The notes below the pieces were generated by a model that saw only the letters and a list, made by a program, of their open reading frames with translations, had not been told where the DNA came from and searched no databases. 64,000 nucleotides of DNA from Taxillus chinensis (Eukaryota; Streptophyta; Magnoliopsida; Santalales; Loranthaceae): positions 24,755,506 through 24,819,505 of the forward strand of contig CM042091.1 in NCBI GenBank assembly GCA_023512835.1, in the 5' to 3' direction. Of this stretch, positions 6,291 through 64,000 are shown piece by piece. Positions within the stretch are counted from its first letter, which is position 1. Each line of letters opens with the position of its first letter. Position numbers and translations under genes: made by a program.

Positions 6291-6292
6291 AG

Positions 6293-6304: not shown

Positions 6305-6351
6305 AAGTTCTATTTGTTCCAAGTAGAGATCCCACTTTTTCTCTCTTACAA

Positions 6352-21262: not shown

Positions 21263-21267
21263 ATATA

Positions 21268-29269: not shown

Positions 29270-29271
29270 AT

Positions 29272-29283
29272 TGGTATCAGAGC
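29272..29283 (+). other. Primer-binding site of Copia D
   Basis: TGGTATCAGAGC two bases after the LTR end; initiator tRNA-Met type. Confidence 0.92.
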
Positions 29284-29320
29284 AGATTCTACTACTCTGT
29301 GGAGATCCCTACTAGCTGAC

Positions 29321-32530: not shown

Positions 32531-32533
32531 ATA

Positions 32534-38357: not shown

Positions 38358-40088
38358 TGTAAGGACCCGTACCTTGAGTTAGTCGGTTTTGCCTCCTGAG
38401 TAGAGTTTTTCTAGATTTTGACCTAGTAAATGGACTCCAATGAATTCACGTGCAAAAGGAAAGATGCTTAGAATGGTGTCCTCTATCTACCACGAAGTTT
38501 CAGGCCAAATGGACATGTATGTGAGGTGCACGTGATATGGGTCCAATTCACGTGCAAGTGTGGTTGACTTCTAAATGATGCAAGGAGGCTAGGGGTGAAG
38601 TTTGAGAGCATTTGGAGTCCATATGGAGGTGCACGTGAATTGGGGAATTCACGTGCAAATTAGCGTGCATGCATATTTTTGCATGGTTCCCTTGGTTTTG
38701 ACATTCTAAGGAACTTTCTCCAAAGGACCATGTTGAAATTCGAGTATTTTGGCCTATATGGGTGCGGAAAGGTGCTAACTTGTGTGATCAAAACTACGTC
38801 GTTTTGATGCTTGGGATTCACTTAATCAAAACTACGTCGTTTTGATGTTGGGTTGGCTATATAAGGAGGAGAAGCCCTCTGTTTTAGGTTTAGGGTTCTC
38901 TTCGATTCTTTGCGGCCGTCGTAGAGAGAGAGAGAGTAGAGAGAGAGAAGGAAGGGGAGTTCTTTGGTTCTTGCCGGGCCGGACCATCTTGCGTGGGGAG
39001 GACGGCGTTTAGTGCGGGAGCAGGGAAGATCTGTTTTAAGGTAGGGATTCCGTTCTTCCTAAGTCCTCCTCTGTCCTAGGGTCCTAGGGCGGAATATGAG
39101 TTATATCTGTTATATTATTTATATGTAAATTCATATAGGTGTGACCTCTTATATGAATGTCGGCCTTCGATGGCGTTTTGGTGTGATTTCGAGGTTGGGT
39201 GGTTAGTGCATGTTAAGTGTTTGATAAAATGCCGGTGTGGATATGCCTGTATGAATATGCATGTGTGTATGCTCGTAACGTGTTTGAAATAATGCCTGTG
39301 AGGCTATGCATATTATGTGTTTGGAATAATAGTTGTGTGGCGGGGTTTGTGAGCTTGTGAATATATGCATGCTAAGTGTTCGACGTTATTCCCGTGTGAC
39401 TAAGCATATTAAGTGTTTGATGTTATGCCTGTATGGCCTTGTGTGCTGCGTGTTTGCTTGTACACCCGGTGGCCGTGGAAGCCTGGGATCGTTTTGTGGA
39501 ACCCGGTGGTCGTGGAAGCCCGGGACTGTTTTGTGGAACCCGGTGGCTGTGGAAGCCCGGGACTGTTCTTGAAACCCGGTGGCTGTGGAAGCCCGGGAGT
39601 GTTTATGTACCAGCCCATGTATGATTGTGTTTGCTATTATAGCCTGTAACTATATCTGGTGGAATAATTGTATCACGACACAGCACTTGTACACAAGTAA
39701 TGTAGATAATAGGTGCATGGGATGGGTTGGGGAGACATGATCCCTACCGAAGTCGTGGTTGCTCACCCCTCCTACCATGTTGTTTTCTTTACAGGAACCT
39801 ACAGGCGTTAGGTGGGACCCCAAGGTGGAAGACCTTATTTACTTTACTGTTTATGTTTTTTTTTATGGGAACTGATGTAACCCCAATGGGGATGGATTGA
39901 AAAGAGGACTTTGTAATAAAGACTGATTTGGTTTGTGGACTGCTTTGATGGATTTTACTTTTCTTGAATGTGTTGTGAAAGTTTAAAATATTCAGTTCTT
40001 GGTTTGTAACCTAACCCCTTTGCCCTCCGTGTGGGTAAATGGGGAGTCACGTACCGGTTTCCTCGGGTTGGAAATCCGGGGCGTGACA
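38358..40088 (+). mobile_element. Gypsy C 3' LTR
   Basis: 1731 bp copy of 30802-32530 with the same promoter module and array, followed by AGTGA. Confidence 0.92.
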
Positions 40089-40093
40089 AGTGA

Positions 40094-41204
40094 GATGAGA
40101 AGTACACACGATGATCTTTTGGACAAAGTTGGTCAACTAAAAATGGCTAATAAAGACATCGATAGGCTGGAAAAGGAACTAGCTGAAACCAAAGCAGAAC
40201 TGGAAAAGGAAAGACTAATCAGTCAAAAGTGGCAAGACTCTGCTGAGATTGCTGCCCACTTTAGGACTACTCCAGATGTTAAAGGTCTAGCCTTAGGTCT
40301 AGGTTTCTCTAAAGACCAAATAGCCAAGGCCCAGACCTACCCTGTACAGACCAAGTGTCTTGCTGGCTTTGTTCCTATTGGCAGTGTGCTCGTTGATTGT
40401 GGAAAGGAGGTATCAATGGCTGTTACTAGTTCACCCAAACCAGTAACACCCGAATTCAAAGACCTGGGTACCATTGCATCTAAGGACAGTGATGCAGTAG
40501 TTGCAATGAAAGAACTGAAAGCTGAACCTTCAGTCAACCTGTCCTCTACATCCCAATGCAAGGGTAAGGGTGTAGTTATCTTAGAGACAAAACCAAGTAG
40601 AAACACGGCTACTTTTGAGACTGGTTCATCCAGCGAGGCTGCTGCATTCCAACCTAAGTTTGTCTCTAATGGAAGAGTTAAGAACGGTCTAGGATTTGTG
40701 AGAAAACCTAGAAAACCTTTTAACACTTCAGAAAAACCCTTGAGACAGGATGTTCAACTGAAATCTGTCACATGCCCCATCTGCTGTGAAGTTGGACACC
40801 TCTCCTATCAGTGCAGATTCTACTCTGGGTATCTTAAGAAGGAGATTGCCACTGAAATCAGGGTAAATCTTAAACAGCTTAATTTCACTAACAATCTGCA
40901 ATGCCACAACAACTCTGATAGGAAGAAACATACCAGGCACACACAGGCTATTCCTTCAAAAGACTTAAAAATCAAACCTGTGAAGAAAACTGTCAAACCT
41001 GTGCCTATTAAAGCTGCCAAAGATAACAATAAGGAAGGAAAACGTGCTGAAGATCTAAACGCTAATCCTGCTAATAACTCTAATGAAGGATCACCAAGAT
41101 TAGCATGGAAAGTTAAATCTGCCCCTTCTTATTGGAAACTTAAATTGCCACCTGCAGCTTTCACTTACCCAAAGCCCAATCTTAATTGGGCCCCCAAGAC
41201 TTAG
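40094..41204 (+). CDS. gag: Copia D gag, C-terminal part
   Basis: Open frame that resumes the gag coiled coil after Gypsy C (heptad-rich stretch IDRLEKELAETKAELEKERL), then the SIRE-like gag tail (LVDCGKEV) and a second zinc knuckle CPICCEVGHLSYQC near 40775. Copia A holds the same parts at 7890-8400. It ends with TAG at 41202-41204, and pol follows in the same frame. Some plant Copia elements use stop-codon readthrough, so this stop could be natural; it could also be a mutation. The ORF has no start of its own: its true beginning is at 29321. Confidence 0.82.
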
Positions 41205-42569
41205 TTGCTCTATGTGCAGGAACAGGTACCTGAAGCTGAAAGTAGCTACCGAAAACCAAAAATCAATTCCAGCCAGTGGTATCTTGACAGTGCCTGCTCT
41301 GTGCACATGACAGATGATGCCTCTCTATTGAGTGAGGTAAGGGAGGTTGCAGCTTCATCTGTCACTTTCGGGGACAATAAAAAGGGTAAGATTGTTGGTA
41401 AGGGTACTCTCTCTAATGGTTCTGTGTCCATTAAGAATGTATCTGTTGTCCAAGGTCTTAAACATAACCTATTGAGCATAAGTCAATTGTGTGACAAAGG
41501 TTATCAAGTGTTGTTCACTAAACACACCTGCACAGTTATGGATTCCCTCTCCAAACAAGTGAAGCTAAATGGACATAGACAAGGCAATGTCTACAAGTTG
41601 GTCTTTGGCAATGCTCAATCTGATGAACCAATTTGTTTTCTGTCCAAAGCTTCACCTGATATTAGTTGGTTGTGGCATAAGAGATTTGGCCATTTAAACT
41701 TTAAAACCATGTCTAAACTGGCATCTCTGGAATTGGTTGAGGGCTTACCCAAGCATGTTTATGAGAAAGAACACCCTTGCAGGGACTGTCAGCTGGGTAA
41801 GCTGGTTAAACATTCTTTTAAGAGTATAGATAAAACCTCAATTACACAACTACTTGAACTTCTGCACATGGATCTATGTGGACCAATAAATGTGTCTTCC
41901 TTATCTGGTGCACGATACTTTCTTGCAGTAGTAGATGACTATACCAAATACACATGGGTTATGTTTCACAAAAACAAAACTGAAACTTTTGAGAATCTTG
42001 TTGAACTCTTCAATTGGGTCACTAATGTTAAAAGTCTCTCTATTAAGTACATTCGTAGCGATTATGGCAAGGAATTTGAATTTTCTGATATGTTAGAGTT
42101 TTGTACTGAACATGGTATTCAGCACAATTTCTCAGCACCAAGAACTCCACAACAAAATGGAACAGCTGAAAGAAAGAATCGAACATTAGTTGAAGCAGCT
42201 AGAACCATGTTGACAGGAGCTCAGTTCCCAAAATCCCTAAGGGCTAAAGCTGTTGCCACTGCTTGTTATGTAAAAAACAGAACTCTAATTAACAAACAAG
42301 CCATGAAAACACCCTATGAGTTGTGGAAGGGAAGGAGACCAAACATTGGTCACCTAAGGATCTTCAGGTGCACTTGCTACATTCTGAACAATGGCAAGGA
42401 TTACTTGAACAAGTTTGATGCCAAATTGGATGATGGATATCTTGTTGGATACTCCATGACTAGCAAGGCTTATCGTGTATTTAATAGAAGAACCAAAGTT
42501 GTTGAAGAGTCTATTCATGTTTTTTTGATGAGACTAACCATGGAATGCAGAAAGGAGATCCAAATGTAA
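41205..42569 (+). pseudogene. pol: Copia D protease and integrase
   Basis: Open 454-residue segment in the gag frame. Protease site reads WYLDSACS: the third residue of the D-S-G motif is Ala (41292-41294), which should impair it. The pre-integrase zinc region follows (LWHKRFGHL ... CRDCQLGK), then the DDE core: Asp in HMDLCGP, Asp in IRSDYGKEF, Glu in QNGTAERKNRT. The integrase tail (DGYLVGYSMTSKAYRVFN) shifts frame at a T-run near 42520; the correct continuation is the next entry. Confidence 0.9.
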
Positions 42570-44470
42570 ATGAAATGCAGGACATTGTCATTGTAGAAGA
42601 TCAGGACACAGATAAGCCCACGACAACAGAAACTATGGAAGATGTACCTAAACCTGATGAACAAAGAGCTGAACCGGTTGCTGCAGAACCAAGTCAAAAA
42701 TCAACAGAAAATCATGACTCTAACATTCAACCTGTTCAGACTCTGCCACTTCTACCAGCCCAAGAACCTGACATTGAGCAATTAGGCATTCATCATGAAG
42801 AAAGAGAAGACCTTCCAAAGGCAAGAAGAAAGTTAAAAGACCATCCTTCTGAACTAATAATTGGAGATCCTGCTGCACGAGTTAAAACAAGGGCTGCCAA
42901 ACATCATGAAAACCTATATATGTGTTTCCTATCACAAGTGGAGCCAAAATCAGTAAATGACGCAGTTCTGGATCACCATTGGATTGATGCAATGCAAGAA
43001 GAATTAAATCAGTTCAAAAGACAGGAAGTATGGGAGTTGGTCAACAGGCCCAGATCACAGCAAGTCATTGGCGTGAAATGGATTCTAAGAAACAAACTTG
43101 ATGCTGATGGTGTTGTAATCGAAACAAGGCCAGACTAGTTGCAAAAGGATACAGACAAGAAAAAGGAATCGACTATGATGAAACCTTTGCACCAGTTGCT
43201 AGACTGGAGGCCATTCGCATGTTCTTAGCATATGCAGCATTCAAGGACTTCAAAGTTTATCAGATGGATATCAAGAGTGCTTTCTTGAATGGAGACCTCC
43301 AAGAAGAAGTCTATGTTGAACAACCACCCGGATTTATAGAGCCAAACCAAGAGCACAAGGTATACAAACTGAAAAAGGCTCTTTATGGACTAAAACAAGC
43401 TCCTAGAGCTTGGTATGAAAACTCTTGTCGAATTTTCGATCAAAAACAAGTTCAGAAAAGGTAAGATTGACCCCACACTATTTCTCAAGGAAGGAAAAGG
43501 ATCACCCTTGATAGTCCAAATCTATGTGGATGACATCATATTCGGATCAAGGGACAAAAAGCAATGTGAAGACTTCTCTCATCTAATGAAAAGTGAATAT
43601 GAAATGAGTATGATGGGAGAACTCTCATTCTTCCTTGGATTGGAGGTCAAGCAGTTAGAGGATGGGATCTTTATCAGTCAAACCAAATACACAAAGGAGA
43701 TTCTAAAGAAGTTTAAGATGACTGATGTGACACACATGAGAACTCCCATTCCTACAAACGCCAAACTGGATATGGATGAAGCAGGCAAGGAGGTGGATAT
43801 TTCATAATACAGAAGCATGATTGGATCCTTGCTGTATCTGACAGCAAGCAGACCTGACATAATGTTTGCAACATGCATCTATTCCAGATACCAAGCTAAT
43901 CCCAAGGAATCCCACTTGTCTCATGTCAAGAGGATCATGCGGTATCTGAAGGGAACTGAGAATTTGGGACTATGGTATCCAAAAGAGTCTGACTTTAAAC
44001 TGAGAGGATATTCAGATGCAGACTTTGCCGGATGCAGGATTGATAGAAAGAGCACAAGTGGAACATGCCAACTCTTAGGCAACAGACTTGTATCCTGGTT
44101 TAGCAAGAAACAGAATTCAGTTTCAACCTCCACAACTGATGCTAAATATATTGCTGCATGAAGCTGTTGTGCTCAATTGCTCTGGATGGCCAGTCAACTA
44201 TCAGATTATGGTTTTGATCTGAAGGCCGTTCCTCTGTATTGTGACAATACAAGTGCCAATGCAATTTCAAACAATCCTGTTATGCATCCCAAAACCAAGC
44301 ACATTGAGGTCAGACATCACTTTATACGTGATCATGTGCTAAAGAAAGACATCTCCCTGGAGTATATATCCACTAATGACCAGCTTGCCGACATATTCAC
44401 CAAACCTCTGCAAGAAACCAGGTTCAGTGAACTTCTGACAAAACTTGGCATGTTGGATTTAAATTCATAA
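42545..44470 (+). pseudogene. pol: Copia D reverse transcriptase and RNase H
   Basis: Integrase-RT linker and RT in frames that shift near 43125 and 43425. Motifs: [58 protein letters not shown], active site IYVDDIIFG (intact), MGELSFFLGLEV, then RNase H SDADFAGC, CDNTSA and the tail HIEVRHHFIRD to LGMLDL. Nonsense codons at 43805-43807 and 44159-44161. Collinear with Copia A 9418-11136. Confidence 0.92.
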
Positions 44471-46140
44471 GACTCACCGCATGTCTTGTGTTTCATTTCA
44501 ACCTAATTAACTGTGCGATTAACATAAGTATGACACTGTTAATAACTGATGATGTCTTCATGAAAATTAGTAATGACTACGTGTGATTCATGCATATCTA
44601 CTGCTAGAAAGTTAGAAATCACATGGATGAAACTTGCTACCTCTGAACCTGGTTCACGTCAGTTGGGTAACCTGTCATAAACTCTCAAGTCTTGAGTGAA
44701 ATGAGTGCAATTTCCCTTATTTTCATCAGAAGATATTCCCATTACCTGTTATTTTATTCTCAGAGAATATCACCTGTGTGGCATTGCATTCATTAACTAG
44801 CAGGAACTGTTGTATCTCATGGTATTGTTGGCCTGCACGGAAAGGATCCTCAATGATTTAATGCTCAAAGGATGACTGAGACTGTAGTATTTGAGAATCA
44901 TAAAAAGCCTATTACTCAACAAGAGCCACTACCTTTTACTGAAAAAGGCAAGGTGAACAAGGCAAAATGATAATAGACAATAGATTGAATGCCTATCTTA
45001 GGGGGAGTCCTCACTGTTCCCAGATTGTGTCTCTGTTATAACAATAGTTGGAGATCAAAATGTATGATCATGTGATTCAAAAAGATACTGTGTTGAGCTT
45101 TGTCCTTGTAAAAAGACTCATGTAAAGCACTGAAACATTGTGCTCCACAAAAGAAAAGAGACAACTCACACAGACCAGCTGAATGATCAAACTCCAAACT
45201 CTACCTATACTTTGTTGTGTTGTAAATCTTACAATGATAGAGTGTGTGTGTTCTGATTCTCAATAGGGCCATCCTGTCTCTCAAGTCATCTATGCTGAAC
45301 TGAAAATCATTGCTGGATCAGGGTTGTGGTAAGATTCGGTTGACCATGAGCTTACTTATACAGTATAATTCTAGTTCCTGAATCAAGCTCACATGCTGAT
45401 CCGAGGGTGAGAGGGTGAGGCCTCCGCCGAGTGAGTTTTCGTTGAAAAGTGAGAAGACTCGGATTTTATGACATGGTTGTTAAAATGGATAAATCATGGT
45501 TTCTTGGATGCTATTTTAACATAGTGATCACCTTCTGACACATGATGCTGTTTGATGATATACTTAATCATTTCTAAGGTAATTGGAGACTTCAATGGTA
45601 GTGATACAATTGCCATACATGTAAATCAGACATTCGGTTGAAATAAACCAAGCTCTGGACATGTGATCTCAATTCCACTCACAACACTGTTCATCATGAA
45701 TAATATCATGTGAATTGTCATATGCATCTCATGTGTGTTGTTAAGTGTTGAAAAGTCCAGAGAAATCCACCGCTCGCTGCTTTCGCAGTCGACCTCAAAG
45801 CAACGACATCGAAGAAGTGCGGGATCGAAGAAGTGCATATCATGTGCTGCGTCGAAGCTTTGAGGGTCATAGCCTCGAAGCATCCAACTTCGTAGCGTCG
45901 CAGTTCAAAAGATCGTAGCGAGACAGAGTCTGTCACTTACTATTCAAGCCTCGTAGACATGTCAGCACGTCACTGTGCACTTAAAATGGAACCTACACAC
46001 CGACATAAGGGGTGATGTGTACCTATCGCTTGAATCTTCCAACAGGTGGATCCGGGAGATAAAGAGACGGGTCAGAGAAAAGAACGCGGACCTGAAGACG
46101 AACCGACAAAGTCTGTGACTTCTACGGTACGCTTCTCACC
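44471..46140 (+). other. Post-pol spacer of Copia D
   Basis: No gene supported. A PPT-like TTAGGGGGAGTCC lies at about 44998-45010, 0.5 kb after pol, as in Copia A. The end (45730-45960) is rich in GTAGCG/TCGAAG words reminiscent of the D LTR repeats. Confidence 0.55.
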
Positions 46141-46338
46141 TCATATATAAGTTACAGATGGAGACGGAGCCCAAAGGTATGTTCGTCGTTTTCACACTCG
46201 AACCCTAACCCTAGATCTCTCTCTCTCTCTCTCTCTCTCTTCGACTATGTCTCTTTTTCTCTTCCTCTTTCCTTTGACCACCTTCGAAGCTTACAATCAC
46301 TCTCTACGAGTGTCTCTTTTTCTCTCTCTACAAGCTCA
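46141..46338 (+). promoter_or_regulatory. Internal promoter of the Copia D extra gene
   Basis: TATA box (CATATATAAG, about 46142-46151), then a telo-box (AACCCTAACCCTAG, 46201-46214), a CT-microsatellite leader (46218-46240) and further CT-rich DNA up to the ATG at 46339. This is the usual layout of a plant RNA polymerase II promoter and leader. It suggests the extra gene was transcribed on its own, not only from the LTR. Confidence 0.55.
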
Positions 46339-47524
46339 ATGGCAGAATCAAGCTCATCGATGGCAGACAACCTACACAACATCGTCCCAGGATTCATCAT
46401 AGACTGGGAAGCCATAGGCGACGCCAGAGTCAGCTGGCTGGACGAATTCAAAAATTGCCTTGATGAAACCGGTGTTGCATTTGTTTGCTCAGGGATGCAA
46501 GACTTGCTGATAGAAGATGTTGCAGAATTTTACGAGACTATGGTACTCACTTGAGCCGACCTTGTGGGAACTGTACAACGAGTGGAGATTCAAGTTTCTG
46601 TCGAAACACTCCGAAATGCACTCTCGCTCCCAAAAGGTACCTTTGATCCTCTTCCCAATCTTTCTAGAGAAGAGTGTAAGTCTTTCCTTGGATACTCCGA
46701 TCCCGGAAAGCAAGGTCGGGGAGCCCTGAAGATGGGTTTCTCCGGTCAGGCACTGGCGACTCTGATAGTCACTAGACAGTGCCTACTGTGCAAGAAGACG
46801 GCTCATGACTCTGCAAGTCATGAGCAGATAAAGATCATGTGTAGTGTTCTACAAAGCAGACGAGTAGACTGGGGAACACAAATACACTCCATGATTAAAA
46901 CCAAGAAAGGACACTTTGGACTTATTCTCACCAAAGTCCTTAGGTTTCTGCACCCTGAAGTATTCTGCAACAGGCCCTCAGTGCCACTGCCGACCAAATA
47001 CATATTCAAAAGTAGTCCCACAGGTTCCTGAGACTATGGAAGGGACTGGGATGGCCACACCATCTATGCATGCCGTTCATCAGGTGGCCACTCAGGTAAG
47101 TGAGGAGTTCGCAGCCAATATCACAATGACTATTCCAGTACCAGCTGCATCTCACTCACGTTCTCCGTCGGCTGAAGAAGTAGATATTCTGGCCAGCAAG
47201 GTCAATGAGAAACTGATGTCCTCTAGCATCTTCAAAGCTTCAGTCTCTCAGGCCTTTGAGGAACGACTGGCTACTATGGAATCTAGCATGGAAGAGGTAT
47301 GTACGCAAGTTGAATCATCAGATCGTACCCTCGACAAGGTGCAGCAAGAAATGACATCACTCACAAGTGCAACCACTGATGGATTTAGACATATGGAAGA
47401 GCACTGTGAAGACCTCAAGGGAGCTTACCAGAGACAATATAAAGGCCTCAGTATAACTCTGGGAGCTATTCTATCAGATTGTCATCGTCTTGCAAGTGGT
47501 GAGATATCCCTCACTGTCAAAAGC
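46339..47524 (+). pseudogene. Extra gene of Copia D, 5' part (PTPD-like domain and coiled coil)
   Basis: Starts MAESSSS at 46339. The domain (VPGFIIDWEAIGD, VAEFYE, VSVETLRNALSLP) aligns with the first ~100 residues of the Copia A gene (VPGHLVDW, VRTFYE, ITPQVICDAFNLP). Next come a Ser/Pro linker and a helical segment rich in heptads (VDILASKVNEKL ... LDKVQQEMTSL). TGA at 46552-46554 (likely CGA originally) and a frameshift near 47000-47030 are the only breaks. The frame reaches AAAGC at 47520-47524, where Gypsy E is inserted, and continues unchanged at 55854. Function unknown. Confidence 0.75.
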
Positions 47525-49331
47525 TGTCACGCCCCGGATTTCCAACCCGAGGAAACCGGTATGTGACTCCCCATTCACCCACACGGAGGGCAATGGGGTT
47601 GGATTACTGGATGCCACACAAGCAAGTCTAACAATTACAATAAATCAAATAAGCCACATCTTTATTTAATTCCAAAACATCAAAGGTTCACAAAACAACC
47701 AAGTCCCTGATTACAGTTCAATCCCTTAGTACATTCCCCTCCCTGGGGTTACATAAATCATAAAAGTACATTACTGAAATGAACAATAAAGTGGAGAGGG
47801 TCTTCCACCTTGGTGTATCCACCTAACGCCTGTAAGTCCCTGGAAAAAAACAACAAACACAGTAGGAGGGGTGAGCAACCACAGCTCAGTAGGGATCATG
47901 TCTCCCCAACCCATCCCATGTTCCTAGCATCTACATGCCATGTGTACAAGTGCAGTGTCGTGATACAATAATTTCAACAGACATAATAACAACCACATCA
48001 ACAATTTACAATCTTCCACCGCCCACAAGGCTAACACTTTAACCACAAGTGATTTAACCGCCTCTTCAGGCCAAGTTATTTAACCGCCTCTTCAGGCCAA
48101 GTGATTTAACCGCCTCTTCAGGCCAAGTGATTTAACCGCCTCTTCAGGCCAAGTGATTTAACCGCCTCTTCAGGCCCTTGGTTTAACCGCCTCTCAGGCA
48201 AAGTTATTTAACCGCCTCTTCAGGCCGGATACCACAGTCAAGCACACAACACACATCGTCACTCAAGCATACAACCAAACACTTGGTGTGCACCCGTTCA
48301 CAAGCGCACAAACCCAACCATTCAGGCCATAGAGCAAACATCCAAGCATACATACATACACTAAACCACAAGTGCGGTCACACGGACATATTACCAAACA
48401 CTTAATGGGCATATACACACAGCTAAGTTCACACAGGCATTTCATCAAACATGTAGCAGGCATGTCTTACAGGCATTTTATCAAAACACTTTTCATGCAT
48501 CACACAAACACCAGAAACACCAAAATCGCCATTGAAGGCCAACATTCATATAGGAGGTCACACCTATATGAATTTACATATAAATAATATAACAGATATA
48601 ACTCATATTCTGCCCTAGGACCCTAGGACAGAGGAGGATTTAGGAAGAACAGAATCCCTACCTCAGGTAAGACGCAACAACATGGCAACAGTCTGATCCC
48701 AAGCCGAACGCCGTCCTCCCCACGCAAGACGCTCCTGGCGAACTCCAGCAGACTCTCCTCCTCCCTCTCTCCCTCTCTCTGCGACGGGCGGTGGAGCAAC
48801 AAACCCTAAACCTAAAACAAGTGGGGCTTCTCCTCCTTATATAGACAACACAACATCAAAACGACGTAGTTTTGATTAAGTGAATCCCAAGCATCAAAAC
48901 GACGTAGTTTTGATTACACAAGTTAGCACCTTTCCGCACCCATATAGGCCAAAATACTCAGAATTTCAACATGGTCCTTTGGAGAAAGTTCCTTAGAATG
49001 TCAAAACCAAGGGAACCATGCAAAAATATGCCTGCACGTGAATTCCCCAATTCACGTGCAACTCCATATGCACTCCAAATGCTCTCAAACTTCACCCCTA
49101 GCTTCCTTGCATCATTTAGAAGACAACCACACTTGCACGTGAATTGGACCCATTTCACGTGCATCTCACATACATGTCCATTTGGCCTGAAACTTCGTGG
49201 TAGATAGAGGACATCATTCTAAGCATCTTTCCTTTTGAACGTGAATTCATTGGAGTCCATTTACTAGGTCAAAATCTAGAAAAACTCTACTCAGGAGGCA
49301 AACCGACTAACTCAAGGTACGGGTCCTTACA
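47525..49331 (-). mobile_element. Gypsy E 3' LTR
   Basis: 1807 bp; plus-strand ends TGTCACGCC and GTCCTTACA. Contains TATA (near 48838-48846), two palindromes (about 48856-48916), four G-boxes (49030-49165) and the array at 48052-48230. Confidence 0.92.
48052..48230 (-). repeat. Tandem array in Gypsy E LTR
   Basis: Seven units of about 26 bp with core TTTAACCGCCTCTTCAGGCC. The 5' LTR has the same array at about 54562-54747. Confidence 0.85.
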
Positions 49332-49344
49332 TCCTCTCCCCCTT
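49332..49344 (-). other. Gypsy E polypurine tract
   Basis: On the minus strand AAGGGGGAGAGGA, next to the 3' LTR, identical to those of Gypsy B and C. Confidence 0.85.
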
Positions 49345-52300
49345 AAGACTTTTCGTCCTCGAAAAGAAATGACATAAGAGGAAAACAAACACAAGCTACC
49401 CATTTGCCACACGGCGAGCCACAACACCCAAATGGGTCATACACCACACACAAGACAACAAAGACATAACAAGTACCACCATAATCCATAACCATAATAA
49501 TGCACATAACACATGTCCACATGGCACGAATACACATCTCAAGGCACATCACAAATAAGAACATGTCAAGACAATACAAATACATCAACTAATACAAGAA
49601 AACACATCACAAGAAAACATCACTATCCCTTGGCCAATGACCACCTCCCACGCTTAAGATTGTTCGTCATCGAACAATTCCGGGTCTTTGCTCACGCATC
49701 ACGGACTTACGTTCCCATGTCTCCTTCGCAGGACATGCCGTCCTCGAAAAGACAACACACCTTCCATAACGCACAAGCTGATGCACCTTGCCCACAACCA
49801 TCCACATACCGCGATCGAAGATATCACACAAAAACACACATAACACGTGTCGAAGTAATTACATGGCACGACGGTGTGAGACATATACTCCCATCCCCAA
49901 CACGTTTAACAAATCACCTCGGTCACGAGATCAACTCACAAGACAAACACTACCGCACATTTAATGTTCCACCGCCCCTCCGCCAACACCATACAAACAC
50001 ATCCGTTGGAAGTTCCCTCACAACCTTCCCACCTTTGGACTTTTCGTCCTCGAAAAGAGAAACCCAATTGCAAACACCACAATGAGATCAAAGCAATACA
50101 AAATGCATTAACAAATACTAACATTGTTAGTACGCTCCAAAGGAGTACCTCCATTTAGCCAACACTAGCGTAACACGCAAGAGCATATCAAGAACTAGAG
50201 CGTAGTTAAGTAGCCCGACGACAACAACTCATGTGAGCAAGTCGGACAACAAGTGAGGTCGAGAAACCTCCCACAAATTCGCTAAGACCCCAACAACCGA
50301 ACAAGGCCAACACCATTAGCCTACGCGCGTCACAATAGAACCAACACTCCCCAATTAACGGTACCCCAACAAGAACCCGCGACACCCCGGATGTAGACCT
50401 CACCCTTACAACAAGCACCAGGAGGCCACAATGAAAAACAAATAAACGGGATAAGAGCATGATGTAAACCACAATCACGGTGCCACATTTGATATCACCA
50501 CAAGAAGACCAGCATCACAAGTGAATCCCCTCACGCGAACGTAGAACAGGCTTAGGGATCCGAAGAATACATCTGCTAGCAAGCTACATTAAAACCTAAC
50601 CAGCACCAATGATGGCTTGCCACAGTGACAATCCAGGACACAGCTATACTAGGATGAAGTTTCCATTCGGTTACGACCAACATGATGCCCAATGGAGCCC
50701 AGGGATGACAAATTCAGTACCAGACACAACCACGGCAAGACTAAAAACTACGATCGGGCTAACACCGGTCACCAACGGTGAGAATCTACCAAAGAATCCC
50801 ATGAACCAGAACGCCACACAAATAACACCTCTCTCGACTATGGTCGGATAGGGATCCACCAAGGTCCCACACGGCCTTCACGAACCGAGGCTTCTGTTAC
50901 AACCCAAGTGATAACGCCTTACTCAGTCAGCAGACATTCCATGCGATAGGAATCCTTTGACGATGGGTAGGTACCAACAACATAGTTCTCTCCACCATGG
51001 AAAACTCTCCTACCTGCAACATGACAACAACGGAATCCTCTGTGTCACCACTCACAGGTCACAAGGGAATCTCCCACCATCTCCGCCATACCAACCATCA
51101 CGTTCTATTCCTACACACCAATGAAACACTCAAATGGGCCAAGAAATACTCAGGCTTTAACCTCACTTTAATGTGGTCACTACAATTCCTCCGGGTAGGC
51201 ATAAGAAACAAGACATGCAAACTCCTGATTCGGGACTTCCACGTTACTCCCAAACACCCCAACACCTTGATGGCATGAACCATCTCACTTACCCCGTTAT
51301 ACTGCACATGAAGGGTTTCCAAGGAGTACAGATGGAGGTCATCCGTCTACCACCACTGCTCTAAACATACACCTTTGTGACATCTGTCCGACATAAATCT
51401 CTCCTCAAGGAGTAGCACTAACACCCCGTCCAAGCAAAAATGTCACAACCGACTCAACTCGGGCATCAAACAACCTTTTTCCAAGACAACAACACTTTAA
51501 TATTTAGCTTAGCCGGCCATCGCACTAGACAAGGTATAACATACACAACATCACCTAGAACACTCTCCTTCATCCTCACACCACATTTAATATTCTAATA
51601 CACTACACCTCATCCTTCTCTACGCACATGTCACAACACCCACATGTAGTAACTCGTTGTATACCTTTACCACGAATGCAATACATACAACAACACAATA
51701 CCAAATTTCCAGCACATTTGCAACACAAGCAACGGAACACAAGACACCTGACGAGTAGAACGTACCAGCCTTACACCTTCTCTCCTCCTCTAAGCCTACT
51801 CCCACAAGATACGAACCGAAGGAATGGCCCTACCACGCAAAAGCACACCCTTAGTCCCTAGAGAAAGATAGTCCGAACTAGGCCTGCCAAATCTCACTTG
51901 CTTACCTCTTTTTACCAAGTTGATGCACCGGGCATAACCCTCAAAACCCACTCATAGCCGATAGTTGAGCTCCTGAACACTTCACATTTTACACGTGTGC
52001 ATCCCCATTTCACAACATGTTCTAAGAACATCACTCATGGTCTTTCACACTCGACAAACATGACACATGGCCACTGCTTGACCATCCGAGAACCCGAACA
52101 CCCATATAGTTATTAACCAGAACTTGCAACGACCACTCTAGCCAACAAGATAACGCTTCAAAGACTCTAAGAGCAGGCTATACTAGCTGCGTTTTCCCCT
52201 CAACCACAACGCTTGGAAAAGAAAGGTAACCATAGGAATATCCCTTTTTAAGCGGTACTCCAACACACACCTCTATCCGCTGAAGAACATATTTCTATTA

Positions 52301-52643
52301 ATCAAGGTTGCCAAGGAGGTGTCACACAATAACTCACAAGCCATCACCTCACACCTCAAGCTCTACTAGCTAGCCAGTCTAAATTCCCTCCCACTAGAAG
52401 AAGGGTTGCCTACAAGATTTGGTTACTTTGATTATCCACATGTGCCAAAATTGAATATCACTCACTTATAAAATCAACACCCAGATACTCATCGATTACT
52501 TATTATTCTTCTAGCGTTATAAATCTATATTTACTCTTTTTACTTAATTATTCCCTAACAGGTCACCAACCACATCCATTCGAAATGCTAACTCAAACGG
52601 GACATGATAAAGTCCACCCCGCCTCACATAACTAGTACGAGAC
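49345..52643 (-). mobile_element. Gypsy E interior, non-coding
   Basis: No supported gene. On the minus strand the last part (about 49640-49735) retains the final chromodomain codons (ETWER-like region, then the FEDEQS-like end) of Gypsy B/C. Upstream of that, 49740-52540 has no similarity to pol that I can see but is collinear with G1 3346-5905. Confidence 0.6.
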
Positions 52644-53160
52644 TCAACCGACAACCCACCAAAGGGGCACGATACCACCAATGAAGTTCTGTCTTGCTTT
52701 TCCACTGGCCTCACCTGGGTAGTCCTCCCGCCTCCAAATCGGGACTCGGCGTTGAGCTTTACCCCTAGCTCGCTGAGCCAATCCCCTAGCATCACTTCCG
52801 GTCCTACTAAAACAGACTGTACGAAGACGTCCTACTTTTCCACAGAGGCGACACCGGTACTGCTCCTTGGCACACTCTCTGTTCCAGTGCCCCGGTTGTC
52901 CACAACAAGCGCAATCTTTCGAGAAACAGGACTCAAACGGGGGGGGGGTGTTGAGGGCTGACAGCTCTCGGCGTACCTCGCTCCTGATCAGTTGTCGAAT
53001 CGCATCCCTCACCTCTGGAATAATCGAGCTCAAGACGCCAACCTCTGCCGTGATTTGTCTATCACCTTCACTCGCAGCCTCTCTCTCACTTGCCCAACCT
53101 GGGTCGCGGCCTCCTCTGTTACCTCAATAGTCGCACGGCTTATAGTTTCCAGAAACATTG
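52644..53160 (-). pseudogene. Gypsy E mini-gag with two zinc knuckles
   Basis: The open segment 52644-53033 gives IIPEVRDAIRQLI, SEVRREL, then knuckles CACCGQPGHWNREC and CRLCGKVGRLRTVC (the second has Arg in place of His). Upstream to about 53160 a broken frame holds TEEAATQVGQV, also in G1. The SEVRREL segment resembles the EEVRREM stretch near the N-terminus of Gypsy B gag, so the capsid seems to have been cut out between the head and the knuckles. A C-run (9 G on the minus strand) at about 52940 may hide a frame change. Confidence 0.65.
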
Positions 53161-54042
53161 GTTAAGCGAAAAGATAGTGCTCCAGATTAACACTAGATGA
53201 TCCCAACAATCGCAAGACCACTACCGACTAAGCAGCTTAAGCTATAGCACGCATTATTACCACACAAATTTACAAATTTACCAAACAAATCTCACAGACT
53301 ATACAAATTTACACTCCACCACATTGCTCATAACCTTGTTTATTGCACACCATGCCAAACAAATTTACACTCCATCGGCTTAACACATGCTCAATCCTTC
53401 ACGAACACCAACATTATTACATATTTAATTTAATGTATTTATTTATTTATTTCTTTCTTGGTTATTATTATTTTATTTTATTAACAGTTCACATTTCACA
53501 ATCTTCACGTTCGCAAGTACTCAGTTTCAATACCACAAATTCTTTTCCATGTTTTCATGCTCGAACCATCACAAAATTTCAGAGTTGCACAATTGAAATT
53601 TTATCATGTTCAAACCTTTTATCCATGCAATTACACACACTGCACACATTTCAGTTCTCATTAAACCACATTGCACAAGCATCCATTCCATAAGCACACG
53701 TTCGGTTAAACAAGGACCTTTCCTTGTAGTCATGCTCAAGGTACTTCAAATAAAATCAGAGTTGCCGAGTTCTCACCTTATCACATTATTCATATTTTTC
53801 TTTTATCACAATTAAAATTTTCACAGGTATCCACACCTTCACATACAACAACCAATGCAACTAGTGCCCTAATGCCAATGCATGCAAATCCTACCACAAG
53901 ACTGGACTACCCCAAGTACACCTTGGAGGCTCAAAGAGGACCATGTTGATCAGGCATGTCCCTCCAGGCTCCTCCAAAGGACTCAAGATAACCAAGTCCG
54001 CCCACTACCCTAGGCCAACTAGACCATGCTCTGATACCATAT
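53161..54042 (-). mobile_element. Gypsy E leader with PBS
   Basis: No gene. The minus-strand PBS (TGGTATCAGAGC) is at 54028-54039. The first ~190 bp of leader match Gypsy B, C and G1; the remainder is AT-rich. Confidence 0.8.
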
Positions 54043-55848
54043 TGTCACGCCCCGGATTTCCAACCCGAGGAAACCGGTACGTGACTCCCCATTCACCCAC
54101 ACGGAGGGCAATGGGGTTGGATTCCTGGATGCCACACAAGCAAGTCTAACAATTACAATAAATCAAATAAGCCACATCTTTATTTAATTCCAAAACATCA
54201 AAGGTTCACAAAACAACCAAGTCCCCGATTACGGTTCAATCCCTTAGTACATTCCCCTCCCCGGGGTTACATAAATCATAAAAGTACATTACCGAAATGA
54301 ACAATAAAGTGGAGAGGGTCTTCCACCTTGGTGTATCCACCTAACGCCCGTAAGTCCTTGGAAAAAAACAACAAACACAAGTAGGAGGGGTGAGCAACCA
54401 CGGCTCGGTAGGGATCATGTCTCCCCAACCCATCCCATGTTCCTAGCATCTACATGCCATGTGTACAAGTGCGGTGTCGTGATACAATAATTTCACCCGA
54501 CATAATAACAACCACATCAACAATTTACAATCTTCCACCGCCACACGTGCTAACACTTTAACCACAAGTGATTTAACCGCCTCTTCAGGCCAAGTTATTT
54601 AACCGCCTCTTCAGGCCAAGTGATTTAACCGCCTCTTCAGGCCAAGTGATTTAACCGCCTCTTCAGGCCAAGTGATTTAACCGCCTCTTCAGGCCCCTGG
54701 TTTAACCGCCTCTCAGGCAAAGTTATTTAACCGCCTCTTCAGGCCCAGATACCACGTCAAGCACACAACACACATGGTCACTCAAGCATACAACCAAACA
54801 CTTGGTGTGCACCCGTTCACAAGCGCACAAACCCAACCATTCAGGCCATAGAGCAAACATCCAAAGCATACATACATACACTAAACCACAAGCTGAGTCA
54901 CACGGACATATTACCAAACACTTAATGGGCATATACACACAGCTAAGTTCACACAGGCATTTCATCAAACATGTAGCAGGCATGTCTTACAGGCATTTTA
55001 TCAAAACACTTTTCATGCATCACACAAACACCAGAAACACCAAAATCGCCATTGAAGGCCAACATTCATATAGGAGGTCACACCTATATGAATTTACATA
55101 TAAATAATATAACGAGATATAACTCATATTCTGCCTAGGACCCTAGGACAAGAGGAGGATTTAGGAAGAACAGAATCCCTACCTCAGGTAAGACGCAACA
55201 ACATGGCAACAGTCGATCCCAAGCCGAACGCCGTCCTCCCCACGCAAGACGCTCCGGGAGAACTCCAATGACTCTCCTTCCCTCTCTCCCTCTCTCTGCG
55301 ACGGCTGGTGGAGCAACAAACCCTAAACCTAAAACAGTGGGGCTTCTCCTCCTTATATAGACAACACAACATCAAAACAACGTAGTTTTGATTAAGTGAA
55401 TCCCAGCATCAAAACGACGTAGTTTTGATTATACAAGTTAGCACCTTTCCGCACCCATATAGGCCAAAATACTCAGAATTTCAACATGGTCCTTTGGAGA
55501 AAGTTCCTTAGAATGTCAAAACCAAGGGAACCATGCAAAAAAATGCCTGCACGTGAATTCCCCAATTCACGTGCAACTCCATATGCACTCCAAATGCTCT
55601 CAAACTTCACCCCTAGCTTCCTTGCATCATTTAGAAGACAACCACACTTGCACGTGAATTGGACCCATTTCACGTGCACCTCACATACATGTCCATTTGG
55701 CCTGAAACTTCTGTGGTAGATAGAGGACATCATTCTAAGCATCTTTCCTTTTGAACGTGAATTCATTGGAGTCCATTTACTAGGTCAAAATCTAGAAAAA
55801 CTCTACTCAGGAGGCAAAACTGACTAACTCAAGGTATGGGTCCTTACA
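54043..55848 (-). mobile_element. Gypsy E 5' LTR
   Basis: 1806 bp copy of 47525-49331. Same TATA, palindromes, G-boxes and seven-unit array. Confidence 0.92.
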
Positions 55849-57002
55849 AAAGCACTCTCCCACAACCATCAGATCGGCCTGCACCTAAACCAGTTGATAC
55901 TCCACAGCCAGCCGCACCTCCCCCAAGTCACTAACAACCTCGCCCATCGCTACTTACACAGGGGGGGAGAAAGCGCGCACACGGAACTACGGTCATCTCA
56001 GACTCTGATGATGATGATGATGATGTTCCAATTGCAACCCGCATAAAGAAGCAGACTGCTGCTCCCTGCCAACCATCCTCTTCCACTCAGCCAGGTCCTT
56101 CAATATCACATCCTAGTATGGCTGAGTATACCATGCCTGCCCCACCTGTCAAGCCAACCGCTACCACTACTGAACAACCTCTAACCCCACCTCGCATTGT
56201 GACTACTGGAGGCACCTCAGTTGAACTGGCTGCTTTCAACACCTACATTGCTAGGGATACCACTACGAGGACCTGCGGCTATGAAGCCTTCTTCACTGGA
56301 CCTGATCTTTGTTGCCTACTTCATGACGGTGAAGAAATGGATAACCTAGAGATGACTCAGTTCATCTTCGCCCAGAAGTCCTTTCTCGCGAAGCTACCTC
56401 TTCACATCTGCCGCGATACCAGGGTGGAACTCTGTTTGCCGATCATGCAGGCTCAGCTGCTCGATGATGCAGCTATGCTCGAGATTATACAAGGTCACAG
56501 ATATGAGAATTCCTTCCTTCCCTGGGATGAGGTAGACCATGTGCTAATTCTGTACTTGTCAACATCCCCACACTGGTTTCTTCTCGACATCAACTTCAAG
56601 AACCAAAGGATCGTCATCTTCAACTCCAAACCCAGTACCTTACTACTCCATCGACGTGAACAACTTCGTGAGTTCAATCGCACTCTCACCCGTGTCATGC
56701 AGGGTTCTTCACATGGGTGTGGTGGATATCCTCTCACCAAACCGATGGAAATCACGCGAGTCAAGCAAGGCGTTCCTCGTCAGGATGATGCTCACAGCTG
56801 TGGCTTTTATGTTTGCCATTACATTCGCATCCTGACTACCAACGGGTTTCCAGCTCTCGTGCCTGAATTTGATCGTATGAGCAGCCGAGCGGCCTCGTTA
56901 CACTTGACTCCTGCTCAACTCCTGCGCGAGCAAGCCGCTGTTTTTCTATTTACACGGAGTGTCTTGTACTCGAATTTAACCCCTAACCGTCCTGTACTCT
57001 AA
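55849..57002 (+). pseudogene. Extra gene of Copia D, 3' part (Ulp1-type C48 cysteine peptidase)
   Basis: Continues the 5' part in frame from 55854. A Pro-rich stretch is broken by TAA at 55932-55934 (probably CAA); then a basic cluster (GGRKRAHG), a run of six Asp, and from 56118 an intact 294-codon segment with the peptidase domain. Numbered from that Met: His152 (PHWFLLDI), Asn169 at the usual Asp place (IFNSK), Gln222 and Cys228 (RQDDAHSCGFYVC), spacing 17 and 6 as in Ulp1/SENP enzymes. Asn for Asp may lower activity. The basic cluster could act in nuclear targeting. Identity to the Copia A domain is low except around the catalytic residues. Confidence 0.82.
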
Positions 57003-57419
57003 TTACATGTACATCGTATCTCTTGCTTTCCACATATCGTGTACTTATTGTTTTGTCGATTATCTTTTTCGTATATCTTTGCTATCTGTGTCTGCTATAT
57101 TCGTGCCTTATTCCCTTGCTCCCCTCGGTTTATGTTCTGGTGCTTGTTCCTCACCCCATAAAGGGGGAGTATTCATCTCAGGGGGAGCCAGCTCGTAGGG
57201 GGTATGCATCTCAGGGGGAGCCAGCTCTTTGTCAGGAGCCAGCAAATGCAGCTTTCTAGCCTACGAGGGAGTATTCATTTCTAGCTAACCCTTTGCACAC
57301 TCCTTCAAATTCTTTATAGGCAAAGACATCTTCTGATTAATCTAAATCTGCCCATAAAACTTGTAGTCTCGGACTTCATACAAATACATGTCGTCGGCTT
57401 ACATTAAATAGGGGGAGAT
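57003..57419 (+). other. Copia D 3' UTR with repeated polypurine blocks
   Basis: No gene. GGGGGAG blocks at about 57162, 57181 and 57214, within a duplicated unit ending GGGGGAGCCAGCTC, plus the true PPT AGGGGGAGAT at 57410-57419 before the LTR. Confidence 0.75.
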
Positions 57420-59423
57420 TGTTGGAAATATAGGATTTGATGAAGCTGCCACAAATAGTCTAAGTCCGAAGACTCGAAGAACGGACGGTCGTAGGGTCGG
57501 AGAGTCGAAGTTCGTAGAAGTGAAACTGTCATAGGACGTATTGGCAAGAGACTTGTAGACTCGCAGAGTCTGGAGACTCAAGGCGAAATAGTGACAGAAC
57601 ATTGCGACTCGTAGATCTAGGGTCGAAGGTCGTAGAGTCATGGTACGGAAAAGAAAGTGTTACTATATGCATCAACGAAGTTCGGAGACTCGTAGAGTCG
57701 AAAAGTGTTAAGAACAAGAACCAACGCTAAATGACTTGTAGACTCGTAGACTCGTAGAGTCCCCACAAACACTTCAACTAATAGATCTTTCAATTGCCAC
57801 TTAACTCGAAGACTCGTAGAGTCGTAGGATTGAAACCTTCGAACACTGTTAAGAAAACAGGACTCGCAGACTCGTAGATCGGAAGTCATAAAGTCAAAGC
57901 CGTTGAACACGGTTAAGAAAACTGGACTCGTAGACTCGTAGGTTGAAGGTCGAAGAATCGACGCTGTAAAGACTGGCAAACAAATGAAATCGTAACTCAA
58001 GAGTTGTAGAGTCGTAGACTCGTAGACTCAAGGGACACAGTCACTATAGAGAAATTGCCATACTTCCAGACTCAGAGATCGATGGTGGAGAGTTGGAGCT
58101 AAAGGGTCGTAGCTATAAAGGAACTCAGTTTATGAACCTCCGTGAAAGACTAAGGAAGAAAAGCTAAGTTGAGGACTTGTAGAGTCGAAGATTTTCAGAC
58201 CACCTAGTCAAATATAGTAAACTGAGAGACCCGAAGGTCGTAGACCCGTAGAGCTAGAGTCGTAGACCCGTAGAGCTAGAGTCGTAGACTCGTAGCTCCA
58301 ATAACAGGTAGATCAGCTGTAATCGAAGAAGTCACTCTAAGCGTTATTCGAAGAGTCGCAGACTCGTAGAGTCGTAGACACGCAGAGTCGTAGACTTTAG
58401 TTAACGAGTGACACTAAAAGGCTAATCCAACTTAACCTCCAGCCTCGAAAACTCCAGCCTCGAAAACTCGAAGATGTGAGTCGTAGACTCACAGAAACAC
58501 CATAAAGCCTGAAGCAAGACTTCGCAACTTTCTACAGGTGCTAGCTGAAATCTTCGAGTCTCCGAACCTACGAGGCATCCACCTCCGAGGCAAACTTACA
58601 ACCCTAAACACAGCCACTTAGCGATATTGTCGGCTAGGGTTTGTACAGAAGCCTGCGCCGTCCCGAGCAGTTGAGCGCATTTAATGACGCATTAATTGCT
58701 GCCAACTACCATCCACAGATGAACGGCCAAGATCGACTGCATGCCAAAAATGCAGTATGGGCATCTGATCTGTAAATCAGAGCAGATCAACCCATCCCCT
58801 GACATTCCGCATTTTCAGTGGCGGGAAGTCAGTCTGTCGGGATGGACATCATGGCGCACGAGCACTTTAATCTTAAAGATATATCTCTCACGCACTTAAC
58901 GTCAAAATTGTGAGTTTAATCTCTCTCTCAAAAGAAAGAAACACACAATACACAAGAAAATGGCTCTGACACACTTGATATAAACAATCCTTTACAGAAC
59001 CAAAAAAAAGAGAGTTCCAACAACAAAAGAGTAAGACTCTGAGAGAAAAATAGAAGAAGTGTTGTGCGCCGCGTTGAACCAAGAACAAGAGTAATCCATC
59101 TGATTATTCAAGAACCTCTTGTTCACCAAAGATCTAGCACTTCCATTAAGTCTAATCTCTGTGTTGTTTTACACACGTCGATCTATCATAAACCATCACT
59201 TTCACAACTGAGATCTGTTAAGAAAAGAGCATTTACTCTTATCTCGTTTTGTGTCGATAGTTCATCATCACTCACGTTATCACTCATAATACTACTGTCG
59301 TCTTCTCTATAAATACTTCCATCATAGTCATCTGCATAGGAATCCAAAACCAACTAACAGTCTAGCTTCCGCACGCAACGAAAGTCTATTCACTCCCCCT
59401 CTAGACTCACTTTGGGAACTACA
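57420..59423 (+). mobile_element. Copia D 3' LTR
   Basis: 2004 bp copy of 27300-29269 with the GACTC/GAGTC field, followed by AATCC. Confidence 0.92.
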
Positions 59424-63341: not shown

Positions 63342-64000
63342 TTACCTCTTAGTTGGGAAGCTGTAGTAGTAGATAACATTGGCCACCATTCGTTGCACCT
63401 GAGCCACAAAGTCAACCGACGTCTCGCCGCGCACTTCCCAAGTTTCCCTCCCTTGCAGAATAGCCATCATGTAGTAGCAAGCAAAGATCCCACAGACTGA
63501 ATTGGTCAAGCCGCCGAGGGATTTCCATTTCGTTGTAGTGAATAAGAGGTAGCTTGTCGGCCAATAAGCCTTCTTTGATCATCACCGCTTTGATTCGTTT
63601 GATGAACCCATGCACTAACTGTCTTTTCCGTCTGGCAAACCTTTCGCCTTGGCTTGGGTCATATAGCACGGCATGTCCTACATCTAGATTCAAATGGACC
63701 AATACATAGTGGCGGTCAATGTGCACCGGAATCAGCACCTCATGCATACCATGCCAAGGGCGGTGCCCTTCATTCTCACCATTGATGCGTTGGCGCCACA
63801 CCTCTTCGGACAAGGGTTGATTGAATATATCGCACAAGCATGATGGAAGTGAATCGAGCTAAGGGGTAGTTATGAGGCTCGGCCTCCACTACATAGCGCA
63901 TGGTCCCTGGAAAAGGTCTATCTCATCACAGGAGAGATATTCATTCTCCGAGATCCTCTTTAGGCTAAAAGGGGTGAAGATATCATTATCCCGTATAAAG
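63342..64000 (-). pseudogene. Ulp1-like (C48) peptidase gene in element H, partial and frameshifted
   Basis: Minus strand, running in from the window edge. The open segment 63412-63837 contains IPVHIDRHYVLVHL and VLYDPSQ: His43 and Asp60 of that segment, 17 apart, as in Ulp1-family peptidases. After PRRLDQ the frame shifts; the next frame reads NSVCGIFACYYM, the Cys box, and ends at a stop at 63342-63344. Upstream (63840-64000), readable Ulp1-type sequence continues in other frames (LSCDEIDLFQG, VEAEPHNYPL). So at least two frameshifts. It differs from the Copia A and D copies outside the catalytic motifs. It is the last gene before the 3' LTR of H. Confidence 0.65.

What the first reader, a model, noticed from the sequence alone, without database searches (positions are those of the whole stretch)
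46339..57002. Copia D has the same extra gene, strongly diverged, so the gene is an inherited part of this Copia lineage
D encodes the same order (PTPD-like domain, helical linker, Ulp1 domain) in the same place after pol. The two proteins align mainly at motifs, so they separated long ago, yet both kept long frames. Two separate elements with one architecture argue against a one-off capture.
Basis: partly seen in the sequence, partly recalled or inferred. Interest (0 to 1): 0.88.

Follow-up and report, generated by a model that had tools for sequence, protein, structure and literature searches.

The report
Retrotransposon gene resembling a SUMO protease
A dead copy of a plant jumping gene still carries the remains of an extra gene whose end resembles enzymes that remove small protein tags such as SUMO, and a distant sister element nearby carries the same gene, so the gene was probably inherited by this jumping-gene lineage rather than picked up once.

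Summary
The gene is there, at the stated place. D is a Ty1/copia element with paired LTRs and a target-site duplication. After pol it carries a forward gene (46339-57002) colinear with A's. The N-terminal domains match (40% over 55 aa, shuffle z 21). The C-terminal domains match (25% over 263 aa), and both pass Pfam's cut-off for Peptidase_C48 (Ulp1). D's copy is dead: two stops, one frameshift and an 8.3-kb nested element. Pfam does not find the 'PTPD' in D.

Inheritance is supported, not proven. The gene's divergence (dN 0.65-0.95) is like gag's (0.52-0.94). It holds 2 stops, where neutral drift at K 0.25 or more predicts 13 or more on average. Lesions are about as dense as in gag-pol. No tree could be built, and the codon-position test failed its control.

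D carries several Sirevirus hallmarks, so this is probably the long-known 'envelope-like' extra ORF of that lineage. It shows no membrane segment and ends in an Ulp1-like domain. Ulp1 domains are known from many other transposons; I found no paper reporting one in Copia elements. A third Ulp1-like relic lies in another LTR-like element at the window's end.

The parts
27300..29269 (+). Element D, 5' LTR (TGTTGG...CTACA)
   Evidence: Pairs with 57420-59423, K 0.043 (one search used ends up to 4 nt longer); TSD AATCC at 27295-27299 and 59424-59428 (read)
29270..29283 (+). Primer binding region ATTGG + TATCAGAGC
   Evidence: matches the Sirevirus junction described in PMC2829016 (passages)
29311..30801 (+). 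Element D gag, broken (Retrotran_gag_2, zinc knuckle)
30802..40088 (+). Nested LTR element between D's gag and pol (LTR K 0.027)
   Evidence: TSD AGTGA read
40089..44467 (+). Element D pol region, broken (pre-integrase, INT, RT)
45750..46338 (+). Array of TCGNAG boxes (either strand) just before the extra gene, like those of D's LTRs
   Evidence: 13 in 589 nt (22 per kb); LTRs 20-21 per kb; 1 in 7191 nt of gag, pol and first linker half; 4 in 2335 nt of the gene; 2 in 417 nt after it; left border chosen by eye
46339..47524 (+). Extra gene of D, 5' part: N domain homologous to A's, then coil-like stretch; TGA 46552, frameshift 46895-47031
47294..47419 (+). Heptad-periodic (coil-like) stretch of D
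   Evidence: moment 1.36, 0 of 200 shuffles as high
47525..55848 (-). Nested LTR element inside the extra gene (LTR K 0.035), TSD AAAGC; the codon register is the same on both sides of the site
55854..57002 (+). Extra gene of D, 3' part, TAA 55932, open 55935-56999
56529..56843 (+). Ulp1-like (Peptidase_C48) core of D; His 56571, Asn 56622 at the Asp position, Gln 56781, Cys 56799 (first bases of the codons)
   Evidence: PF02902 47.2 bits; spacings 17 and 6
57162..57417 (+). Four polypurine octamers AGGGGGAG (57162, 57180, 57213, 57410); the last is followed by AT and the LTR
   Evidence: 0.009 expected in 417 nt
57420..59423 (+). Element D, 3' LTR
21693..24467 (+). Element A, the homologous extra gene (TAG at 22170; Ulp1 core 24006-24437; His-Asp-Gln-Cys all present)
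63342..63858 (-). Third Ulp1-like relic, frameshifted, in another LTR-like element cut by the window's end
   Evidence: (14.5 bits, below cut-off)

Best explanation
D is a decayed Ty1/copia element, very likely of the Sirevirus (SIRE) lineage. Its extra gene sits where that lineage's so-called envelope-like ORF sits. The protein had three parts: an N domain (PTPD-like only through weak similarity in A), a coil, and a C-terminal Ulp1/SENP-like cysteine-peptidase domain. Elements A and D inherited it from a common ancestral element, and it evolved about as fast as gag. Shown: homology of both end domains, place, order, and coding state until about the time of insertion. Inferred: inheritance rather than repeated capture. 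Inferred with less confidence: the protein is an accessory factor that removes SUMO or a related tag, from the element's own particle proteins or from host silencing factors, with the N domain and coil giving targeting and assembly. It may be made from its own transcript, since the LTR-type boxes recur just before its ATG.
For: Homology A/D at both ends. C48 above cut-off in A and D. Profiles of window pieces against solved structures: A and D cores alone give Dub1 entries at 0.0005, yeast Ulp1 at 0.012 and SENP1 at 0.016; with the two pieces of the third relic added, SENP1 at 5.4e-8 and yeast Ulp1 at 5e-5. His-x16-Asp and Gln-x5-Cys in A, same spacing in D. dN of the gene 0.65-0.95, gag 0.52-0.94, INT/RT/RH 0.12-0.32. 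2 stops in D against 13.1 on average at K 0.25 per lineage and 20.8 at 0.5. Lesions 3 in 2.3 kb of the gene, 9 in 5.9 kb of gag-pol (from; tallied). Sirevirus features in D. Box array before the gene. No membrane segment.
Against: No tree and no outside relatives. Linkers do not align beyond chance. At K 0.1 the neutral count (mean 6.4, 6% of runs with 2 or fewer) is not sharply excluded, so the argument leans on the saturated dS. D has Asn where Ulp1 has Asp, so its activity is doubtful. With A and D alone the best structural hits are deubiquitinases/deneddylases, not SUMO proteases, so the tag is open. A deviates from the Sirevirus pattern: T for A in the terminal octamer, no octamer after the gene, no box array before it. 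Models were too poor to test the fold (pLDDT 34 and 53; no Foldseek match at or below 0.001). No expression or activity data.
Confidence: 0.72

Rival explanations
1. A's and D's lineages captured related N-domain-plus-Ulp1 genes independently, or swapped the 3' region by recombination with other elements.
For: The gene differs far more than INT/RT/RH (23-40% identity against 56-83%). A third Ulp1-like relic lies in what looks like another kind of LTR element. PMC6317226 sorted SIRE extra ORFs into 19 groups with little or no mutual similarity and offers fast evolution or separate origins (passages). C48 domains turn up in several unrelated transposon types, so capture recurs (passages).
Against: Gag is as diverged as the gene, so divergence alone does not ask for a second origin. 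Both end domains, order, strand and place agree.
Confidence: 0.18
2. The Ulp1-like domain is a pseudo-enzyme: it only binds SUMO or a partner, and its fast change reflects loss of catalysis.
For: Asn at the acid position in D; D's and A's genes are both broken.
Against: His, Gln and Cys are kept in D, all four in A. Clan CE enzymes with Asn at this place exist (recalled, no call).
Confidence: 0.25
3. It is an envelope-like or movement protein, as this ORF position has been described since SIRE1.
For: Same position and strand as the Sirevirus envelope-like ORF (PMC2829016 and PMC4093653 passages; PMC7264820 first of three parts of the text).
Against: 0 of 1609 nineteen-residue windows in the six pieces scanned reach 1.6 in hydropathy; the C domain is C48.
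Confidence: 0.04
4. A passenger fragment without function that happens to have stayed open.
For: One copy of each, both broken; the codon-position test gave no signal beyond its control.
Against: At saturated synonymous distance a neutral frame would hold 13 or more stops on average (K 0.25 and above; for A 12.6 at K 0.25); D has 2 and A has 1. Protein similarity persists at E 1e-15.
Confidence: 0.05

Closest known systems
Sirevirus (SIRE/Maximus) extra ORF 'eORF-3'F' or envelope-like gene (SIRE1, ToRTL1, MtRetro3, LjRetro3)
   Same: Ty1/copia; forward ORF between pol and 3' LTR; polypurine octamers and primer junction; MtRetro3/LjRetro3 ORFs of 774 and 793 aa are of similar size (PMC4093653 passages; A's frame here is about 924 codons)
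   Different: Described as envelope-like; for the bean ORFs no conserved domain was found. Here a C48 domain and no membrane segment. Their sequences could not be compared here.
KIU (Kaonashi) genes of VANDAL-type Mutator-like elements
   Same: A plant transposon gene with an Ulp1 domain, kept over long times (PMC13317346 passages)
   Different: DNA transposon with transposase; Ulp1 there is part of a VANC-type gene; this is an LTR retrotransposon
Ulp1/C48 domains of Ginger1 DNA transposons, Utopia and NeSL non-LTR elements, oomycete Cryptons
   Same: Transposon-encoded Ulp1-like domain (passages of PMC2836005, PMC4640811, PMC3212892)
   Different: Other transposon classes; in Ginger1 and Utopia fused to transposase or RT, in CryptonS some on an additional protein. 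The passages seen name no LTR retrotransposon with it.
Host SUMO proteases (yeast Ulp1, human SENP1)
   Same: Catalytic core aligns, same His-acid and Gln-Cys spacing (the spacing in yeast Ulp1 is recalled)
   Different: Asn for Asp in D; activity unknown; no similarity outside the core was seen in these searches
Antisense extra ORFs of Retand, RIRE2 and Grande
   Same: Extra gene between pol and 3' LTR
   Different: Opposite strand and other domains (PMC11963269: 0 occurrences of Ulp1, C48 or SUMO in the main text)

Membership tests
Sirevirus (SIRE lineage of Ty1/copia) | AGGGGGAG followed by AT and the LTR's TG | tested here: met
   D exact (57410-57421); A has TGGGGGAG, one base off
Sirevirus (SIRE lineage of Ty1/copia) | Several octamers clustered within 0.5 kb of the 3' LTR, after the extra gene | tested here: met
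   D: 4 of 5 octamers of the pol-LTR region (nested element left out) lie after the gene, within 0.26 kb. A: 2 before the gene, none after, so A does not meet it
Sirevirus (SIRE lineage of Ty1/copia) | CA-ATTGG-TATCAGAGC at the 5' LTR junction | tested here: met
   D exact at 29268-29283; A reads CA-AGTGG-TATCAGAGC
Sirevirus (SIRE lineage of Ty1/copia) | PolyC-rich integrase signal near the LTR end | tested here: inconclusive
   CACCCCCCCTCTAG in D's 5' LTR and A's 3' LTR, but the published consensus was not seen
Sirevirus (SIRE lineage of Ty1/copia) | Repeated LTR boxes with CGG-CCG core, again 5' of the extra gene | tested here: inconclusive
   D has a box array in both places, but its core is TCGNAG. 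A's box CGGARTAAG is in the LTR only.
Sirevirus (SIRE lineage of Ty1/copia) | RT/INT/RH tree placement | not testable with these tools
   No reference sequences reachable
Peptidase_C48 (PF02902) | Profile score at or above the curated cut-off of 20.7 bits | tested here: met
   D 47.2, A 39.1; third relic's larger piece 14.5, not met
Peptidase_C48 (PF02902) | His, Asp, Gln, Cys of the active site | tested here: inconclusive
   A has all four; D has Asn for Asp (correspondence from the SENP1 alignment)
Transposase_32 / putative plant transposon protein domain (PF20167) | Score at or above the cut-off of 45 bits | tested here: not met
   A 19 bits, D pieces no match at E 1
Envelope protein | Transmembrane segment | tested here: not met
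   0 of 1609 windows at or above 1.6 in six pieces of A and D (hydropathy only)
KIU / VANDAL Mutator-like element | Mutator-type transposase and element ends | not tested
   Not searched for; the gene lies between the pol and 3' LTR of a copia element, which argues against it

The most novel reading that the evidence does not exclude
The 'envelope-like' genes that plant LTR retrotransposons carry after pol are, at least in Sireviruses and in a second LTR-element lineage, a fast-evolving family of SUMO-protease-like proteins. They act against host SUMO-dependent control or mature the element's own proteins, and have nothing to do with envelopes.
Probability: 0.25. Interest if true: 0.8.

Novelty: new variant of a known kind. 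Interest (0 to 1): 0.5.

Why it matters
What the extra gene of Sireviruses does is an open question: PMC6317226 (passages) calls its function rather speculative and finds known domains in only 21.4% of plant extra-ORF proteins. An Ulp1/SENP-like domain turns it into a testable enzyme question. It would add LTR retrotransposons to the Mutator, Ginger1, Utopia/NeSL and Crypton elements that carry this domain, and so suggest that SUMO or ubiquitin-like tags are a repeated tool or target of transposons.

Tried and rejected
Rejected: envelope reading (no membrane segment); chance similarity (500 shuffles); dN/dS or codon-position bias as proof of selection (codon-shuffled alignments give the same bias: Ulp1 0.44/0.51/0.31 observed, 0.43/0.56/0.29 in 148 controls); structure as proof (pLDDT 34.4 and 52.9; in the 50 Foldseek rows shown the TM-score on the query is 0.25 or less). 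Led nowhere: viral-contig scans with the Ulp1 pair and with D's integrase piece (no relative); single-sequence PDB searches (best C48-like hits at E 0.33 or worse). The D-gene stop counts were wrong (a piece out of frame) and are replaced.

Not seen in print: no paper stating an Ulp1 domain in a Sirevirus or other Copia extra ORF turned up (13 listed of 14; 0; 20 of 35; 20 of 38; 20 of 3146; none of the 20 holds 'peptidase C48'; 20 of 244; 15 of 81; 12 of 148; 10 of 375). The last asked for 'Sirevirus' and 'Ulp1' together and found 1 paper, PMC13317346, whose passages treat the two apart. For most papers only the listing was seen. The supplement of PMC6317226 on domains of extra ORFs could not be opened, so such a domain may already be listed there. 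Papers of subscription journals are mostly not held.

Full report
What is there. Element D runs from 27300 to 59423. Its LTRs, 27300-29269 and 57420-59423, differ by K 0.043, with a target-site duplication AATCC on both sides. Between them lie gag, a nested LTR element (30802-40088), pol to about 44467, a 1.9-kb linker, and the extra gene from ATG 46339 to the stop codon 57000-57002. An 8.3-kb LTR element sits inside the gene in the opposite orientation (47525-55848, duplication AAAGC, LTR K 0.035). It interrupts between codons, so the codon register is the same on both sides. Other lesions of the gene: TGA 46552, a frameshift between 46895 and 47031, TAA 55932. The coordinates given are right.

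Homology with A. A's gene (21693-24467, TAG at 22170) and D's are homologous at both ends. N domain: 40% over 55 aa, then 23% over 98 aa, shuffle z 20.9 and 6.5. C domain: 25% over 263 aa, E 1e-15, z 26.6. Between them both have a heptad-periodic stretch (0 of 200 shuffles as strong in either, in A only just), but the linkers do not align beyond chance (53, shuffled maximum 64). Pfam calls the C domain Peptidase_C48 in both, above its cut-off. Calling D's N domain PTPD-like therefore rests on its homology with A's.

Is it really Ulp1-like? Single sequences find solved C48-like structures only at E 0.33 or worse. A profile of the A and D pieces finds the Dub1 group ('Membrane thiol protease', deubiquitinase and deneddylase Dub1) at 0.0019 and yeast Ulp1 at 0.021. 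Trimmed to the cores it gives 0.0005 and 0.012, with SENP1 at 0.016. Adding the two pieces of the third relic gives human SENP1 at 5.4e-8 and yeast Ulp1 at 5e-5. So membership in this protease clan holds without the relic, while the leaning towards SENP1 comes from it; whether the tag would be SUMO, ubiquitin or NEDD8 is open. In the SENP1 alignment the catalytic columns match (residue roles recalled). A has His, Asp, Gln and Cys. D has His 56571, Asn 56622, Gln 56781 and Cys 56799, with the same spacings of 17 and 6. Predicted models were too poor to help. Foldseek listed several proteases of this clan among its first hits, but none at E 0.001 or better, and retroviral integrases were mixed in.

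Inherited or captured twice? Domain by domain, A and D share 56-83% of residues in INT, RT and RH, 26-50% in gag and 23-40% in the extra gene. Synonymous sites are saturated in 10 of 13 comparisons. dN is 0.12-0.32 for INT/RT/RH, 0.52-0.94 for gag, 0.65-0.95 for the gene. So the gene changes about as fast as gag, and its divergence does not by itself call for a second capture. Neutral drift of the D pieces by K 0.25 gave 13.1 stops on average (lowest 5 in 300 runs), K 0.5 gave 20.8, K 0.1 gave 6.4. D has 2, in line with the 1.6 expected from decay since insertion alone (K 0.021 per copy). Lesions are 3 in 2.3 kb of the gene and 9 in 5.9 kb of gag-pol (from, tallied), nested elements not counted; one of the nine, TAG 41202, could be a natural gag-pol boundary. 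The gene was thus coding about as long as gag-pol was. Against over-reading: the codon-position pattern did not beat its control, and no tree was possible because the protein database was switched off, the genome search did not complete (eleven calls), and the two scans of viral contigs found no relative.

Which element is it? D meets several Sirevirus marks described in PMC2829016 (passages). The polypurine octamer AGGGGGAG is followed by AT and the LTR, with three more octamers after the gene (4 in 417 nt, 0.009 expected from a first-order Markov model). The junction CA-ATTGG-TATCAGAGC is exact. PMC2829016 also reports that repeated boxes like those of the LTR cluster 5' of the envelope gene. 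D's TCGNAG boxes are at 20-21 per kb in the LTRs and 22 per kb in the 589 nt before the ATG; elsewhere they are 1 in 7191 nt of gag, pol and first linker half, 4 in 2335 nt of the gene and 2 in 417 nt after it. The left border was chosen by eye, and the core is not the published CGG-CCG. A meets fewer marks: one-base-off octamer, AGTGG junction, no octamer after the gene, no boxes before it. PMC6317226 (passages) reports a forward ORF at this place in 74% of SIRE elements, in 19 groups with little or no mutual similarity. The gene is therefore probably a member of a known class of extra ORFs, with a domain that I did not find reported for it.

A third relic. Six-frame search with A's core alone finds D at 1.2e-13 and two frame-shifted pieces within 63345-63858 minus at 4e-5 and 0.004. 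With D's core alone, one of the two pieces comes at only 0.024 and the other not at all. The A/D profile against the larger piece gives probability 64%, E 6e-5. Pfam gives 14.5 bits for it, below cut-off, and nothing for the smaller piece. About 1.5 kb downstream on that strand is an LTR-like start TGATAACGTGCATTTT. From recall this looks like a Ty3/gypsy element of the Athila/Tat kind; no call shows it. If so, the domain is not confined to Copia.

Known parallels. Ulp1/C48 domains are on record in Mutator, Ginger1, Utopia/NeSL and Crypton elements (passages), and PMC2836005 cites the suggestion that they take part in transposition. None of the passages seen names an LTR retrotransposon. In KIU genes of Mutator-like elements the domain is part of a VANC-type gene whose relatives counter silencing; the domain's own role there is unknown (PMC13317346 passages; VANC function PMC5735166 passages).

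Mechanism. Most likely an accessory protein with a protease domain for SUMO or a related tag. Target, activity and expression are inference.

Verdict. Observation largely right, with corrections. Inheritance likely but untested by trees. New variant of a known kind.

Noticed in passing
63342-63858, minus: Third Ulp1-like relic in another LTR-like element that runs off the window; frameshifted.
   Followed up: partly
1-1749, minus: Fragment of another D-family copy (LTR and gag), about 90% identical to 28204-29939.
   Followed up: no
12352-21265, 30802-40088, 47525-55848: Three nested LTR elements of one related group (LTR pairs K 0.013, 0.027, 0.035), each inserted in a copia element: in A between pol and extra gene, in D between gag and pol, in D's extra gene. 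14049-20493 and 32822-39253 are 91% identical.
   Followed up: no
5930-11136: Element A lacks the 5' part of its 5' LTR, and the part of pol before the integrase end appears to be missing (only residues 256-439 of D's 454-residue integrase piece align).
   Followed up: no
6240-6290: A long run of C in A's 5' LTR at the place of the polyC integrase signal; could be slippage or an assembly fault.
   Followed up: no
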